NCBI RefSeq assembly: GCF_000519085.1
Contig: NZ_KI912577.1
Coordinates: 2,898,632 to 2,962,631, forward strand
Length of the DNA stretch: 64,000 nt
Origin: Methylobacterium sp. 10
Lineage (GTDB): Bacteria; Pseudomonadota; Alphaproteobacteria; Rhizobiales; Beijerinckiaceae
Direction of reading: 5' to 3'
Shown here in pieces: positions 30,225 to 35,714 of this stretch. Position 1 is the stretch's first letter. Every line of letters starts with the position of its first letter. The translations under genes and the position numbers were made by a program. The notes below the pieces were generated by a model. The model was not told the origin of the DNA and did no database searches. It saw only the letters and a list, made by a program, of their open reading frames with translations.

Positions 30225-31124
30225 CTAGAACCAAGGTTGCGTGACAAAGCTGTAATTCACCTTCACGCCGAACGTGTATTGGTTCTGCGATCCGAACTGG
30301 CGGCGTACCAACGGGCTGTCGGCGGATGAACCGACGATGCGGTTGTAGCCGATGTACCCTGTCGCGGCCCACCGCTCGTCGAACGTGTAGGTCGCAGCGC
30401 CCAATGCGCCGACCGTGACGTAGCTGTCGGGCCGGAACGGGGTCAGCGTCCCGTTCAGTGCCGCCTCGAACGGCTGAACACCGAAATAGCGCCGGGCGAA
30501 GCTGGCATCGCCGAAGTTGAAGCGCGGCCCGACGGAGACCTGCCAGCGGTCGAAGGGCTGGATCACGTCCGCGCCGAGCGAGCCGACGAAGCCGTGATGC
30601 CCGAAGATTCCATGGCGCAACTCGGCCCGGCCCCGCAGCCATTGCGTTGGGTAATACTCGACGAAGACACCCGGCTCGATGGCGAATTGGGCATCGCGCA
30701 AACCGAACAGGTCACGCCGGTTGTCGCCGTAATAGCGGCCGGGGACGTATTCCGCCGTCAGACCGGCATTGAAGAGCGGCGAATCGTAGAGCGTGAAGCT
30801 GATCCCGTCATCGGGCGACGAGAACCGGCGCGGCGTACCGGCCTTGGCGATGCTGATCGTCGGGTAGCCGATCGCGGTATACTCGCTCGACCCCGGAAAG
30901 CTCGGCGTCGCCTGAACGGTGGCCGTCACCGTCACCACCCAGAGGTTCTCATCCAGGGCGAGAAACGTCGGTGGCCGCTGGATCTCCATGAGGTCGGCGG
31001 CTCCGGCGCTCCCCGCCGCCATGATCGAGCCCGCAAGGGCCAGGGTCGCCATGGCGGCAAGCCTCGTCCTTAAAGCAGGGCGCGAGGATGAGTTGAGAAA
31101 CATCGTGTCCATGAACCATGTCAT
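30225..31124 (-). CDS. MipA/OmpV-family outer membrane protein
   Basis: About 299 aa with a signal peptide ending near SAGAAD. The beta-rich body matches the MipA/OmpV pattern: early VTVTATVQATPSFPGS, GRFNFGDASFARRYFGV-like segment, a late WAATGYIGYNRIVG strand and a terminal aromatic residue. It is predicted to be an outer-membrane beta-barrel or scaffold. The start is inferred as ATG 31124, with GTG 31130 and ATG 31112/31103 as alternatives. It lies downstream of the amidinotransferase but is separated by a terminator, so it is probably an independent unit. Confidence 0.82.
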   Translation of the reverse strand: MTWFMDTMFLNSSSRPALRTRLAAMATLALAGSIMAAGSAGAADLMEIQRPPTFLALDENLWVVTVTATVQATPSFPGSSEYTAIGYPTISIAKAGTPRRFSSPDDGISFTLYDSPLFNAGLTAEYVPGRYYGDNRRDLFGLRDAQFAIEPGVFVEYYPTQWLRGRAELRHGIFGHHGFVGSLGADVIQPFDRWQVSVGPRFNFGDASFARRYFGVQPFEAALNGTLTPFRPDSYVTVGALGAATYTFDERWAATGYIGYNRIVGSSADSPLVRRQFGSQNQYTFGVKVNYSFVTQPWF

Positions 31125-31190
31125 AGACACAAATCCCTAACGCATCACGACAAACCCATCGTGGCGGTAGACCTATGTTGGCACCGACAG

Positions 31191-31224
31191 AAAAACGCCT
31201 CGACGCGCAGGGCGCGCCGAAGCG
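31191..31224 (-). terminator. Intrinsic terminator after the amidinotransferase
   Basis: On the minus strand, a 12-bp stem with two G-U pairs (31213-31224 with 31196-31207), a 5-nt loop and a run of five U (31195-31191). It lies 10 bp past the amidinotransferase stop, so that gene appears monocistronic. Confidence 0.7.
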
Positions 31225-31233
31225 CTTCCCAGA

Positions 31234-32418
31234 CTAGAAGTAAGACTTCAATGCACCGCGCCGGCGCACATCGAGCGTGGCGCAGTGGAACGAGCCGCCG
31301 AACGGCCCGTAGGACAGGAACGGCGCCGGGATCGGATCGAAGCCCCAATCCTTGAGGGCCTTGATCAAGGTCGGTTGGCTCGCATCGACGACGATCTTCT
31401 TCTCGTCGATGGCGAGCACGTTGATCGAGGTCCAAGGCGAGCACATCGAGATCTTGCTCATGAAGCCTTCCACCGGATCGGGACGGGGCGCGATCAGCAC
31501 GTCCCACTTCTTCAGCACGGCGGGGAGCTTCTCGACGTCGATGTAATCCGGGTTGACCAGCACCTTGCCCGGCGCCAGCGGCATGAAGGACGAGTCGATA
31601 TGCATCGGCTGCGGGCAACGGCTCTCGATCTCGTGGACGCGAAAGCCGGAACCGAGATGGCGGCGCAGCCACTCGATGCCCATGAGGTTCGTCACGTTGG
31701 AGCGGGTGACGAAAAGGTCACGGCCACAACGGACGAAATCGGCCGCGTCGAAGACCGGCTCGAACTCGTTGACCGTGAACTGCATCGGCTCGCCGGCCTT
31801 CAGGTTCGGCACGCGGTAGTCGTAATTGTAGAGTTCGTCCGTCAATTGCGGCCGCGGCGCCGAGGTCCAACGCGCGCCGTTACGAAAATATTCCTTGAAT
31901 AGCGAGCGGTAGGCATCCCCCTCGAAGTAGCGCGAACGCCAGCACATCGGGCTCTCGATGATCTCGTCGCCGATGACGAGGTATGGGTCGCGCGGGCAGG
32001 CGACGCAGAAGCCGCGGGATGACCAGCGCGGTGCGTTGTACTTGCGCGAAAAGTCCACCGTATCGGGACGGCGCACCTTCACGCCCTCGCCGGCGAGGAT
32101 CGAGATGAAGTTGTCGAGCTCGGCCTGGGCCAGCTTCTTCATGAACTTCGGATAGCGGAAACCCGCGGCGAACCGATAGAACGGCTGGGCGGCACGCGGC
32201 AGGTTGAAGATCACCGTGAGGTGGTGGGAGGGGATGGTCGCGCCGTCGAGGCTGCCGACGATCACCTCTTCCAGAGGGTCCCACTCGTTCCATGCCATGA
32301 CCGGCGATTTCGGCACGGGGGTGCCGCGATAATCGGCCGGGGCGGTGTCGTAAGCATCGATCTGCGCGTCGGCGAGCACGGCATCCCGGGCCGTGGTGAA
32401 AGCTTCGCGGTCCATCAT
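31234..32418 (-). CDS. Amidinotransferase, candidate for guanidinylation of hopanoid cyclitol ether
   Basis: 394-aa enzyme of the glycine / inosamine-phosphate amidinotransferase family, which transfers an amidino group from arginine to a primary amine. The triad is intact: Asp224 (FDAADF), His273 (PMHID), Cys379 (GGSFHCATLDVRR). The spacing matches human AGAT Asp254/His303/Cys407, and the Cys region is near-identical. The gene is divergent from hpnL, 209 bp apart with a perfect dyad between, and has its own terminator. Family members include StrB1, which acts on aminocyclitol phosphates. The neighbouring HpnI/HpnK/HpnJ make an amino-cyclitol ether hopanoid, so I infer that this is its acceptor. 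Starts ATG 32418 and 32415 are both possible. Confidence 0.9.
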   Translation of the reverse strand: MMDREAFTTARDAVLADAQIDAYDTAPADYRGTPVPKSPVMAWNEWDPLEEVIVGSLDGATIPSHHLTVIFNLPRAAQPFYRFAAGFRYPKFMKKLAQAELDNFISILAGEGVKVRRPDTVDFSRKYNAPRWSSRGFCVACPRDPYLVIGDEIIESPMCWRSRYFEGDAYRSLFKEYFRNGARWTSAPRPQLTDELYNYDYRVPNLKAGEPMQFTVNEFEPVFDAADFVRCGRDLFVTRSNVTNLMGIEWLRRHLGSGFRVHEIESRCPQPMHIDSSFMPLAPGKVLVNPDYIDVEKLPAVLKKWDVLIAPRPDPVEGFMSKISMCSPWTSINVLAIDEKKIVVDASQPTLIKALKDWGFDPIPAPFLSYGPFGGSFHCATLDVRRRGALKSYF

Positions 32419-32492
32419 TCGTCCCTTGGTGGCGCCTTTGTTGCGGCTGTTTCTTCGAGGCTCAGGCCTCATCGCCGCTTTGGCCCGCACTG

Positions 32493-32512
32493 TGTCTATC
32501 GGGTGATAGACA
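32493..32512. promoter_or_regulatory. Perfect dyad in the amidinotransferase-hpnL divergent promoter
   Basis: TGTCTATC-GGGT-GATAGACA, 8-bp perfect arms. On the minus strand a TTGCAG lies 15-16 nt upstream of the TCTATC part, so the dyad may overlap the -10 box of the amidinotransferase. It is a candidate repressor operator. A related CATAGACA half-site is at 31122-31129, at the OmpV-type gene start. Confidence 0.5.
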
Positions 32513-32627
32513 ACGAAATCCAAAGCTGCAACTTCCGATGATGCCAACGTTTTCCGGAAGGTTTTTCGTCCGGGGGGTCGGTGAATTTCTCTAAAAAATC
32601 GTCCGCGCCGACGGTCGAAGGGGGATC

Positions 32628-33779
32628 ATGAAGCGTCTGACGACATTGGCCCTCATCGTCGGCCTCTGCACGGTTGCAGGCCTGTTCTTGTCATCGGGAC
32701 TGGATGATGTCGCCGCCGCGGTGGTGAGCGCCGGCTGGGGCGCCGCCATCGTCGTGGCGGCACGCGCCGTGGCCGTGGGCTGGGCCGGCCTCGGCTGGTT
32801 CGCCGTGTTCCCGCGGGCCGAACGCCCGAGCCTCTGGAACTGCGTCTCCCTGCGTTTCGTCCGCGAGGGCATCAACACGCTCCTTCCCGTGGCCCAGGTC
32901 GGCGGCGACTTCGTCGGCGCACGGCTCCTGGCACAGCGTGGCGTCTCGGGCGGCCTTGCCGGCGCCAGCATGTTCGTCGACCTGATGACGCAGGCCGTCA
33001 CCCAGTTCCTGTTCACGGTCGGCGGTGTAGCCATCCTCGCCTGGCTGCATGGCGATGGTCCGGTCGTGCGCACCGTCGCGGGCGGTCTCGCCATCGCGGC
33101 GCCGGCCCTCGGCGCTTTCTTCCTGATCCAGCGCCGCAGCGGTCACCGGGTTATCCAGGCCATGCTGAACCGCTTCGCCGCCGCCCGCGAATGGCGCGCT
33201 CTCGGCGCGGTCGACGTGCTCTACGACGGCCTGCGCAGACTTTATTCCTCGCCCAAGCGGGTCATCGGCGCCATGGGCGTGCACATGATCGGTTGGATCG
33301 TCGGAGCGGCCGAGGTCTACGTGGCTCTGCATTTCATGGGCTATCCAGTCAGCATCGCCGAGGCCATCGTCATCGAGAGTCTGGCCCAGGCGGTCCGCGG
33401 CGCGGCCTTCGCGGTGCCGGGGGCGCTCGGCGCCCAGGAAGGCGGCCTCATCGCCCTCTGCGCGATCTTCGACATCCCAGCCGAGGCTGCCCTGGCGCTT
33501 TCCCTGGTGAAGCGTCTGGCCGATCTCATGGTCGGCGTGCCCGGTCTGGTGGCCTGGCACTTCATGGAGGGCAAGAAGGACGCGGCGGACACGGAGGACC
33601 GGACGTCTCCGGACCAGGTGTCCGTGCAGCAGGGGACGGCGAGAGCCGGGGGCGACATCGCCCGGGCGGTGAGCCTGGAGGCCATGCCGGTGTCGCGGGT
33701 GCCCGCCAACCTCGTGGGAAACCACACCGTGCTGCGGTCGATGGAGAGCGATATGGGGACGCTGCGGAAATGCGCGTGA
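32628..33779 (+). CDS. hpnL: Hopanoid-associated membrane protein HpnL
   Basis: 383-aa polytopic protein (about 8 hydrophobic segments) of the lysylphosphatidylglycerol-synthase/flippase-like family found in hopanoid loci. The conserved GGDFVGARLLAQRG and VPGALGAQEGG segments are visible. A hydrophilic C-terminal tail of about 70 residues follows. The role in hopanoid or lipid transport is inferred from the family. hpnM starts within its last codons (TGC-GCG-TGA / ATG at 33770), indicating coupling. Confidence 0.92.
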   Translation: MKRLTTLALIVGLCTVAGLFLSSGLDDVAAAVVSAGWGAAIVVAARAVAVGWAGLGWFAVFPRAERPSLWNCVSLRFVREGINTLLPVAQVGGDFVGARLLAQRGVSGGLAGASMFVDLMTQAVTQFLFTVGGVAILAWLHGDGPVVRTVAGGLAIAAPALGAFFLIQRRSGHRVIQAMLNRFAAAREWRALGAVDVLYDGLRRLYSSPKRVIGAMGVHMIGWIVGAAEVYVALHFMGYPVSIAEAIVIESLAQAVRGAAFAVPGALGAQEGGLIALCAIFDIPAEAALALSLVKRLADLMVGVPGLVAWHFMEGKKDAADTEDRTSPDQVSVQQGTARAGGDIARAVSLEAMPVSRVPANLVGNHTVLRSMESDMGTLRKCA

Positions 33780-34499: not shown

Positions 34500-35714
34500 A
34501 TGGACCTCACCTTGACGGATCTGCCTTCGGCGAGCCTGAGCTGGCTCTCACTCGTGTTCCAGCTCATGGCCCTGGCCGGCTGCGTCTACGGGTTGACGGC
34601 CGCCTTCCTGGCGGGCCGCTACGCGCGCCGCGCCGTTCCGGTCTTGCCGGCGAACGCCGCGCGTCCCTCGGTCACCATCCTGAAGCCGCTCTGCGGCATG
34701 GAGCCCAATCTCTACGAGAACCTCGAGACCTTCTGCCGTCAGGATTACGCCGGACCGGTTCAGGTGGTGTTCGGCGTCCAGAACGCCACGGATCCGGCAA
34801 TCGCCGTGGTGCGCCGCCTGACCGAGGCCTATCCGGCCCTCAGGCTCGATCTCGTCATCGACGCGCGCCAGCACGGTTCGAACCGCAAGGTCTCCAACCT
34901 CATCAACATGTCGGCCCAGATCGCCCACGACGTGATCGTGCTGGCTGACAGCGACATGGTGGCGAGGCCCGATTACCTCGAACGGATCGTCGCCGAACTC
35001 GGGCAGCCGGGCGTGAACGGCGTCACCTGCCTCTATCACGGCGTGCCGGCCCATCGCGGAGTCTGGGCCCATCTCTCGGCGCTGGCCATTGATGTGCAGT
35101 TCCTGCCGAACGTGGTGATGGGCACCTCGCTCGGCCTCGCCAAGCCCTGCTTCGGCTCGACCATCGCGTTCACCACCACGGCCTTGGCCGAAATGGGCGG
35201 CTTCGAGGCCTTCCGCGACGATCTCGCAGACGACTACGCCGTGGGCGAGGCCCTCCGCGCGAAGGGCGGCCTCGTGGCGATCCCGACCTTCACCATCGGG
35301 CATACCTGCGTCGACACCGATCTCGCCGGCCTGTGGAAGCACGAGCTGCGCTGGAACCGGACCATCCGCAACGTCGATCCGGCGGGCTATGCCGGCTCCA
35401 TCGTCACCCACGCCTTCCCGCTGGCCCTCATCGGCGCCCTGATCCCCGGCGCCGACACGAGCGGCCTCGTGGTGGCAGCCCTGGCGCTCGCCTGCCGCAT
35501 CATCCTCTGCGTCCGCCTGGAGCGCGCCTTCGGCCTCGCTCCGCACCCCTACTGGCTGTTGCCGATTCGCGACATCCTCTCCTTCATGAACTTCTCCTGG
35601 AGCTTCGTCTCGGGGGCGGTGACATGGAAAGGTCACGATTATCGGGTGGTTGCAGATGGCACACTGATCCCCGAGCGAAGCCTCGGCCACGATGCTGGTG
35701 CATCCTCGCTCTGA
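34500..35714 (+). CDS. hpnI: Hopanoid glycosyltransferase HpnI
   Basis: 404-aa membrane glycosyltransferase related to ceramide glucosyltransferase (GT21-like). It has an N-terminal helix (about 14-36), a GT2-type domain with the DSDMV metal motif, a ...LRWNRT acceptor motif, and C-terminal helices. In Burkholderia work HpnI adds N-acetylglucosamine to bacteriohopanetetrol, the first step towards the cyclitol ether. It is followed by hpnJ. Confidence 0.94.
   Translation: MDLTLTDLPSASLSWLSLVFQLMALAGCVYGLTAAFLAGRYARRAVPVLPANAARPSVTILKPLCGMEPNLYENLETFCRQDYAGPVQVVFGVQNATDPAIAVVRRLTEAYPALRLDLVIDARQHGSNRKVSNLINMSAQIAHDVIVLADSDMVARPDYLERIVAELGQPGVNGVTCLYHGVPAHRGVWAHLSALAIDVQFLPNVVMGTSLGLAKPCFGSTIAFTTTALAEMGGFEAFRDDLADDYAVGEALRAKGGLVAIPTFTIGHTCVDTDLAGLWKHELRWNRTIRNVDPAGYAGSIVTHAFPLALIGALIPGADTSGLVVAALALACRIILCVRLERAFGLAPHPYWLLPIRDILSFMNFSWSFVSGAVTWKGHDYRVVADGTLIPERSLGHDAGASSL

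What the first reader, a model, noticed from the sequence alone, without database searches (positions are those of the whole stretch)
31234..32418. Candidate enzyme for guanidinylated hopanoid head groups
Seen: an amidinotransferase with an intact Asp224/His273/Cys379 triad sits divergent from hpnL at the edge of a complete hopanoid locus, with its own terminator. Known: HpnI, HpnK and HpnJ make a cyclitol ether carrying a free amine, and family members such as StrB1 amidinate aminocyclitols. Methylobacterium strains are reported to contain a guanidine-substituted bacteriohopanetetrol cyclitol ether. Inference: this gene adds the guanidine group from arginine to the hopanoid amine. To my knowledge this step has no assigned gene.
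Basis: partly seen in the sequence, partly recalled or inferred. Interest (0 to 1): 0.93.

Follow-up and report, generated by a model that had tools for sequence, protein, structure and literature searches.

The report
Likely enzyme for guanidine-capped hopanoid lipids
A conserved Methylobacterium gene beside the hopanoid (bacterial sterol-like lipid) genes looks like the unassigned enzyme that puts a guanidine group on these lipids, a step for which the papers searched name no gene.

Summary
The gene is real. Window 31234-32418 (- strand) encodes a 394-aa amidinotransferase (AMT) with catalytic Asp224/His273/Cys379 and its own strong terminator hairpin, beside a hopanoid locus (hpnL-M-I-J-K and further hpn genes). 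It is not a chance neighbour: in 80 of 80 Methylobacteriaceae loci kept by the search it is divergent from hpnL (gap 205-314 nt), with hpnJ close by. These carry hpnJ (one 56%-complete genome only as fragments), and each family has an AMT copy directly beside an HpnL gene, twice away from the main hpn locus. Four nearest relatives outside the clade (53-61% identical) have no HpnJ over cut-off. The best reading is transfer of an amidino group, probably from arginine, to the amine of BHT cyclitol ether, giving the guanidine-substituted lipid reported from Methylobacterium. The acceptor is inferred, not shown. Against it: a 2025 lipid survey that grew four Methylobacterium/Methylorubrum strains mentions no guanidine form in its main text, and reported producers such as Geobacter and cyanobacteria could not be checked.

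The parts
31234..32418 (-). amidinotransferase (AMT), 394 aa; proposed hopanoid head-group amidinotransferase
31186..31228 (-). intrinsic terminator hairpin with U-run directly after the AMT stop codon
   Evidence: -28.4 kcal/mol, z -4.65, 0 of 200 shuffles fold as well; a stem before TTTT is also found downstream in 21 of 78 loci against 9 of 600 random pieces
32419..32627 (.). shared intergenic region between AMT and hpnL (gap 205-314 nt in 80 of 80 loci)
32493..32512 (.). conserved palindromic block TGTCTATCGGGTGATAGACA, promoter or operator; role not known
   Evidence: exact here; the other window match has 3 mismatches; 79 of 80 loci keep a match with 4 or fewer mismatches, against 25 such matches elsewhere in 1.52 Mb; best 6-7 mismatches in the four loci of other families tested
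32628..33779 (+). hpnL, flippase-like membrane protein, proposed partner
   Evidence: TIGR03476 340 bits; PF03706
33776..34393 (+). hpnM (MlaC-like; start codon inferred, overlaps the hpnL stop)
   Evidence: TIGR03481 99.3 bits, below its cut-off of 160.1; PF05494 MlaC
34500..35714 (+). hpnI, BHT glucosamine glycosyltransferase
   Evidence: TIGR03472 449 bits
35764..37206 (+). hpnJ, radical SAM cyclitol-ether enzyme
   Evidence: TIGR03471 808 bits
37446..38294 (+). hpnK, deacetylase
   Evidence: TIGR03473 338 bits
38387..41053 (-). hpnN, hopanoid transporter
   Evidence: TIGR03480 991 bits
41616..42821 (+). hpnH, adenosyl-hopene transferase
   Evidence: TIGR03470 533 bits
42917..43771 (-). hpnG, hopanoid-associated phosphorylase
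   Evidence: TIGR03468 232 bits
43768..45807 (-). shc, squalene-hopene cyclase
   Evidence: TIGR01507 752 bits
45804..47198 (-). hpnE, hydroxysqualene dehydroxylase
   Evidence: TIGR03467 396 bits
47120..47974 (-). hpnD, presqualene diphosphate synthase
   Evidence: TIGR03465 344 bits
47971..48885 (-). hpnC, squalene synthase
   Evidence: TIGR03464 273 bits
48882..49922 (-). hpnA, hopanoid-associated sugar epimerase
   Evidence: TIGR03466 464 bits

Best explanation
The gene encodes a hopanoid head-group amidinotransferase. HpnI, HpnK and HpnJ build BHT cyclitol ether with a free amine (published for other bacteria). This enzyme then takes an amidino group, probably from arginine, onto Cys379 and passes it to that amine, giving guanidine-substituted BHT cyclitol ether and ornithine. 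HpnL, its constant neighbour, is proposed to handle or flip the product. Shown here: enzyme family, intact catalytic residues, conserved pairing with HpnL, co-occurrence with HpnJ, a distinct clade. Inferred: acceptor, donor and the role of HpnL.
For: Divergent from hpnL in 80 of 80 loci, hpnI and hpnJ within the locus in 80 of 80 (the best 80 of 111 relatives, all Methylobacteriaceae). The clade is found in four further families, f2, f52, f108 and f116: G853 (79%), G052/G123 (76%), G304 (72%), G431 (64% and 63%). HpnJ is over cut-off in G853, G052, G304 and G431; G123, 56% complete, has two HpnJ end pieces. In each family an AMT copy lies directly beside a HpnL gene: divergent in G853 and G052/G123, HpnL then AMT on one strand in G304, AMT then HpnL in G431. 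The HpnLs of G853, G052, G304 and G431 are over the TIGR03476 cut-off (the cut-off HpnL of G123 was not tested). In G304 and G431 the pair is away from the main hpn locus. Tree: the clade without G431 has 100/99 support, with G431 94/95. Class sample: the 4 genomes with clade AMT are all among the 26 of 337 with HpnJ (Fisher 2.8e-5, or 0.005 without Methylobacterium). Outside relatives G238, G910, G828, G652: HpnJ over cut-off in 0 of 4. Guanidine-substituted BHT-CE is reported for M. extorquens AM1 and other methylotrophs (passages). AMT is nearly as conserved as HpnJ (median identity 90% against 95%; HpnL 70%).
Against: No activity or mutant data. A 2025 UHPLC-MS survey of 54 alphaproteobacteria grew M. 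soli, M. oxalidis, M. aquaticum and Methylorubrum rhodesianum; its main text has no word beginning 'guanid' and none of its five BHP groups is a guanidine group. Genomes of M. soli, M. oxalidis and M. rhodesianum carry the gene here (L024, L010, L042). The two named producers, M. extorquens and M. organophilum, are themselves not among the 80 records kept, so their gene was not seen directly. One of two copies in G431 (L168) is not next to HpnL or hpn genes. Zymomonas, Geobacter and cyanobacteria are reported producers but could not be searched; if they lack the gene, another enzyme makes the same lipid. 22 of 26 HpnJ genomes in the class sample have no AMT match at E<=1e-40, so it is an accessory step. 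HpnL is common in hpn loci without AMT too (10 of 13), and the AMT-side HpnLs do not form one clade. The 80 loci are one lineage, not 80 independent cases.
Confidence: 0.68

Rival explanations
1. The enzyme works in the hopanoid pathway but on another amine, for example BHT glucosamine before HpnJ, or another amino-hopanoid, and guanidine-BHT-CE arises secondarily or not at all.
For: Guanidine-substituted BHT glucosamine is reported in Dolichospermum BIR53 (a culture that was not axenic) and mentioned, as unpublished data, for a Nostoc (passage). Co-occurrence with HpnJ cannot tell HpnJ from HpnI and HpnK, which travel together with few exceptions (section).
Against: The lipid reported in Methylobacterium is the cyclitol ether form (passage).
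Confidence: 0.15
2. The enzyme amidinates a small soluble amine, or makes another guanidino metabolite, and sits beside hpnL for reasons unrelated to hopanoids.
For: The nearest non-hopanoid relatives pair with a SugE/Gdx-type small exporter in 3 of 4 loci. SxtG and GATM act on small amines (recalled). The 2025 survey does not mention guanidine hopanoids in Methylobacterium.
Against: Pairing with HpnL survives rearrangement in several families, and the genomes with clade members carry HpnJ.
Confidence: 0.1
3. It is a glycine amidinotransferase (guanidinoacetate or creatine type).
For: Same family, 47.5% identity to GATM.
Against: GATM falls in another part of the tree. GATM Arg322, recalled to bind the substrate carboxylate, is Tyr292 in 81 of 81 sequences. 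Hopanoid context.
Confidence: 0.03
4. The enzyme modifies another envelope amine (such as an aminolipid) whose export uses HpnL.
For: HpnL is a flippase-like family of unassigned function (passage), and one G431 copy stands alone.
Against: The genomes with clade members carry HpnJ.
Confidence: 0.04

Closest known systems
SxtG (PDB 6u1r)
   Same: Closest solved relative: 55.8% identity, same triad, and also without the GATM Arg322 (Phe there).
   Different: SxtG groups with another protein in the tree, outside the window's clade. The saxitoxin role of SxtG is recalled; here the neighbours are hopanoid genes.
L-arginine:glycine amidinotransferase, GATM (PDB 1jdx)
   Same: Same family by sequence, Asp/His/Cys triad, guanidine-binding Asp positions (roles recalled).
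   Different: 47.5% identity, other clade, Arg322 replaced by Tyr292, Asn300 by Gln270.
StrB1, inosamine-phosphate amidinotransferase (PDB 1bwd)
   Same: Same family; amidinates an aminocyclitol (recalled), the closest chemical analogy to BHT cyclitol ether.
   Different: More distant (E 1.7e-71; a StrB1-like plasmid protein is 37% identical); that protein keeps the Arg at the Arg322 position.
HsvA (PDB 5wpi)
   Same: Same family.
   Different: Lower score than SxtG and GATM; not placed in the tree.
Hopanoid genes HpnI/HpnK/HpnJ and HpnL
   Same: Neighbours and co-occurring genes of the AMT.
   Different: No paper found names an amidinotransferase for hopanoids; the 2025 survey reports no further candidate genes near hpn clusters (section 26).

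Membership tests
GATM/StrB1/SxtG amidinotransferase family | full-length similarity to solved members | tested here: met
   SxtG 3.5e-131, GATM 8.9e-105, HsvA 4.5e-92, StrB1 1.7e-71
GATM/StrB1/SxtG amidinotransferase family | catalytic Asp/His/Cys triad | tested here: met
   D224, H273, C379 aligned with GATM and SxtG and invariant in 81 of 81
GATM/StrB1/SxtG amidinotransferase family | amidino transfer activity with arginine as donor | not testable with these tools
   needs purified enzyme
Glycine amidinotransferase (GATM proper) | groups with GATM in the tree | tested here: not met
   GATM lies in a different group (100/99)
Glycine amidinotransferase (GATM proper) | Arg322 (substrate carboxylate; role recalled) | tested here: not met
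   Tyr292 in 81 of 81; Arg in GATM
SxtG | same clade as SxtG | tested here: not met
   SxtG pairs with G652 (88/85), outside the window's clade
Hopanoid biosynthesis genes | conserved position in or beside the hpn locus | tested here: met
   80 of 80 loci kept, all Methylobacteriaceae; an AMT copy beside HpnL in four further families; one of two G431 copies is not
Hopanoid biosynthesis genes | occurs with the cyclitol-ether gene hpnJ | tested here: met
   class sample 4 of 4; order sample of 392: clade AMT in 12 genomes, 11 with HpnJ over cut-off and G123 with two end pieces
Hopanoid biosynthesis genes | mutant loses or changes a hopanoid | not testable with these tools
   bench test proposed
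Hopanoid biosynthesis genes | present in all reported producers of the guanidine lipid | not tested

The most novel reading that the evidence does not exclude
A two-gene module, amidinotransferase plus HpnL, that puts guanidine caps on hopanoids and flips the capped lipid, kept together through rearrangement in hopanoid-making bacteria. A sister branch of the same enzyme is paired instead with a small SMR exporter of the SugE/Gdx type and makes a soluble guanidine compound. This would give the first gene for guanidine-hopanoids and a first function for HpnL.
Probability: 0.35. Interest if true: 0.8.

Novelty: new variant of a known kind. Interest (0 to 1): 0.66.

Why it matters
Guanidine-substituted hopanoids have been proposed as biomarkers (passage), yet no gene for the guanidine step was found in the papers searched, and a 2025 survey that looked for further genes near hpn clusters reports none evident (section 26). 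A named gene would let producers be predicted from genomes and would allow a mutant to show what a strongly cationic hopanoid does in the membrane. It would also be, to my knowledge, the first amidinotransferase of this family acting on a membrane lipid. The constant pairing with HpnL gives a testable idea for that protein's role.

Tried and rejected
Structure prediction from 16 close sequences gave mean pLDDT 41.7 and was not used; no fold search was run on it. A scan against defence-system models found nothing.

Chance neighbour: rejected. MipA as a constant partner: rejected, found in 9 of 80 loci; some loci end soon after the AMT, so this is a lower bound.

Role of GATM Arg322: a paper on this residue (PMC10092499, passages) discusses a disease variant and says nothing of substrate in the passages seen, so the role stays recalled. 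A paper search on SxtG was seen as a listing only.

Testing Zymomonas: four HpnJ-positive genomes of one family (G405, G502, G274, G579) were looked at because two are 2.0 Mb. The TGT protein of G405 matches the many solved TGT structures well but far from identically (that those are the Zymomonas enzyme is recalled), so G405 is not taken to be Z. mobilis. The others were not checked further. None of the four has an AMT match at E<=1e-40.

The two cyanobacterial plasmid hits listed (Dolichospermum H16, Planktothrix H27) are 38% and 32% identical and sit in other settings. A search for HpnJ on plasmids was run and not used.

HpnL tree: the AMT-side HpnLs do not form one clade. G853 joins Methylobacterium (100/99), but G052, G304 and G431 stay unresolved, so co-inheritance of AMT and HpnL as one unit is not shown. 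HpnL is also common in hpn loci without AMT: 10 of 13 such loci searched.

Full report
What is there. Window 31234-32418 on the minus strand is one open frame of 394 aa, the only match in its 4.98-Mb genome. The nearest named record is Methylobacterium bullatum, 99% identical at the protein. It has no Pfam match at E<=1e-3 but matches solved amidinotransferases over nearly its full length: SxtG 3.5e-131, GATM 8.9e-105, HsvA 4.5e-92, StrB1 1.7e-71. D224, H273 and C379 fall on the catalytic triad and are identical in all 81 sequences compared, the window plus 80 loci.

Neighbourhood. hpnL starts 209 nt away on the other strand, followed by hpnM, hpnI, hpnJ and hpnK. Beyond them lie hpnN, hpnH, hpnG, shc, hpnE, hpnD, hpnC and hpnA. 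hpnM scores below its curated cut-off. hpnB was not seen among the ORFs scanned, so 'complete' holds for the core genes.

Is the arrangement kept? The protein search of genome contigs confirmed 111 relatives and kept the best 80, all titled Methylobacterium or Methylorubrum except one titled only Methylobacteriaceae. M. extorquens and M. organophilum are not among the 80. In 80 of 80 the gene is divergent from hpnL with a gap of 205-314 nt (median 211); hpnI and hpnJ are within the locus in 80 of 80, hpnK in 79, hpnM in 78, MipA in 9. Median identity to the window is 90% for AMT, 95% for HpnJ, 70% for HpnL and 77% for HpnI, so the enzyme is under strong constraint. The shared intergenic region holds a palindromic block kept, with at most 4 mismatches, in 79 of 80. 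These loci are one lineage, so they count as one piece of evidence.

Independent lineages. Searches of whole genomes with the protein covered 249 and then 392 genomes of the order, 337 of the class, 299 of the phylum (samples that overlap), and 7 and 2 genomes around two hits (E limits 1e-3, 1e-80, then 1e-40 for the rest). Members of the same clade appeared in four other families: G853 (79% identity), G052 and G123 (76%), G304 (72%) and G431 (two copies, 64% and 63%). In the phylum sample the clade members among 13 hits were 6 genomes of the window's own genus. In G853 and G052/G123 the gene is divergent from an HpnL. In G304 a HpnL lies just upstream on the same strand, and in G431 one lies just downstream. 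In these last two genomes the pair is away from the main hpn locus, which has its own HpnL-like gene. The AMT-side HpnLs of G853, G052, G304 and G431 pass the TIGR03476 cut-off (287, 306, 265 and 230 bits; cut-off 195.65), while the one at G431's main locus does not (144 bits). So the pairing with HpnL persists in three different gene orders. The second G431 copy (L168) has no hpn gene near it in the stretch fetched.

Co-occurrence with HpnJ. HpnJ passes its cut-off in 9 of 249 genomes of the order sample and 26 of 337 of the class sample. In the class sample the clade AMT occurs in 4 genomes, all HpnJ-positive (Fisher 2.8e-5, or 0.005 without the two Methylobacterium genomes). In the 392-genome order sample the clade AMT occurs in 12 genomes; HpnJ is over cut-off in 11, and in the twelfth (G123, 56% complete) two end pieces of HpnJ are found. 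Counting G123 as lacking HpnJ, the 249-genome order sample without the genus gives only Fisher 0.03. The relatives outside the clade G238 (61%), G910 (58%), G828 (53%) and G652 (53%) have no HpnJ over cut-off, 0 of 4; G625 (39%) has a HpnJ-like match of 363 bits, under the cut-off of 578. Two Bradyrhizobium plasmid copies (60-61%) are not near hpn genes; their chromosomes were not searched. Conversely 22 of 26 HpnJ genomes in the class sample have no AMT match at E<=1e-40, as expected for an optional decoration.

Tree and residues. Methylobacterium, G052/G123, G853 and G304 form a clade with 100/99 support; adding G431 gives 94/95. SxtG pairs with G652 (88/85), GATM lies with others (99/99), and G238, Bradyrhizobium and G910 form a separate group (90/87). 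The window protein is 55.8% identical to SxtG and 47.5% to GATM. At the position of GATM Arg322, recalled to bind the substrate carboxylate, the clade has Tyr or Phe, SxtG has Phe, and GATM and a StrB1-like protein have Arg. The position of GATM Asn300 is Gln270 in the window and in the 80 loci. This speaks against a plain glycine enzyme but does not identify the acceptor.

Chemistry. The published pathway is BHT to BHT-N-acetylglucosamine (HpnI), to BHT-glucosamine (HpnK), to BHT cyclitol ether (HpnJ) (PMC12583986, introduction passage). M. [quoted passage not shown] PMC5642901 (passages) lists guanidine-substituted BHT-CE from methylotrophs (one cited title is on pink-pigmented ones), Zymomonas mobilis, Geobacter sulfurreducens, Dolichospermum, Aphanizomenon and a Gloeocapsa enrichment. 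I saw none of the primary papers it cites. The simplest step that fits is transfer of an amidino group from arginine to the cyclitol amine by this enzyme.

Against. The 2025 survey PMC12583986 (abstract, sections 14, 19, 20, 26 and 30, first part of section 16, and passages seen) grew M. soli, M. oxalidis, M. aquaticum and M. rhodesianum; its main text has no word beginning 'guanid', and its five BHP classes include no guanidine class. Genomes of M. soli, M. oxalidis and M. rhodesianum carry the gene here (L024, L010, L042). Its supplements could not be read. Either the lipid was not targeted, was not made under that growth, or the gene does something else. The same paper says that special attention was given to new genes near hpn clusters and that no obvious candidates were evident. 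The Zymomonas, Geobacter and cyanobacterial producers could not be tested for the gene.

A wider pattern. In the sister group that lacks hopanoid links, a SugE-like SMR gene sits beside the amidinotransferase in 3 of 4 loci: Bradyrhizobium CB82 (134 bits, over the SugE cut-off of 126), G910 (96 bits, below it) and G238 (51% identical to the CB82 protein over 83 residues, not run against the family model); not in Bradyrhizobium 195. None was found in the clade loci looked at (L001, L118, L167, L168, L169, L196). Gdx/SugE proteins export guanidinium (recalled). So each branch seems paired with its own membrane protein: HpnL where hopanoids are made, a small exporter where they are not. This fits a guanidino product that must cross or move within the membrane, and it also feeds the rival that the product is small and soluble.

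Prior art. Full-text searches found no paper holding 'amidinotransferase' with 'hopanoid'; two with 'Methylobacterium', neither on hopanoids by title or abstract start; two papers on guanidine hopanoids in Methylobacterium, without a gene in the passages seen; and none with 'hpnL', 'hopanoid' and 'flippase'. The wider search showed 20 of 727 papers, none of the 20 with 'hopanoid'. The library holds open-licence papers only.

Verdict. The hopanoid link is well supported by comparative genomics; the exact reaction is the best inference (0.68) and needs a mutant or an assay. In checking, two rival odds were lowered slightly (0.12 to 0.10 and 0.05 to 0.04) only so that the set sums to one.

Noticed in passing
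L120 10503-10751, L197 10975-11334, L164 13112-13423: A SugE/Gdx-like SMR gene lies beside the amidinotransferase in 3 of 4 members of the sister clade that has no hopanoid link.
   Followed up: partly
window 32493-32512: Conserved palindrome TGTCTATCGGGTGATAGACA between the amidinotransferase and hpnL, kept in 79 of 80 loci with at most 4 mismatches; regulator unknown.
   Followed up: partly
window 31103-31132: A second hairpin or palindrome with a similar half-site (TGTGTCTAT) lies at the start of the MipA-like gene; it may bind the same regulator.
   Followed up: no
L167 10744-11769 and L170 9145-10122: One genome (G304) has two HpnL genes, one paired with the amidinotransferase and one in the main hpn locus.
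   Followed up: partly
window 31234-32418: No Pfam or NCBIfam model names this amidinotransferase properly: no Pfam hit at E<=1e-3, and only a weak NF045660 hit far below cut-off.
   Followed up: no
L211 6001-6648: A Streptomyces plasmid carries a partial or broken amidinotransferase, 76% identical to the Bradyrhizobium CB82 one over 216 residues; the record has no gene table there.
   Followed up: no
L010 11242-12072: In Methylobacterium oxalidis hpnK matches on the other side of the amidinotransferase.
   Followed up: no
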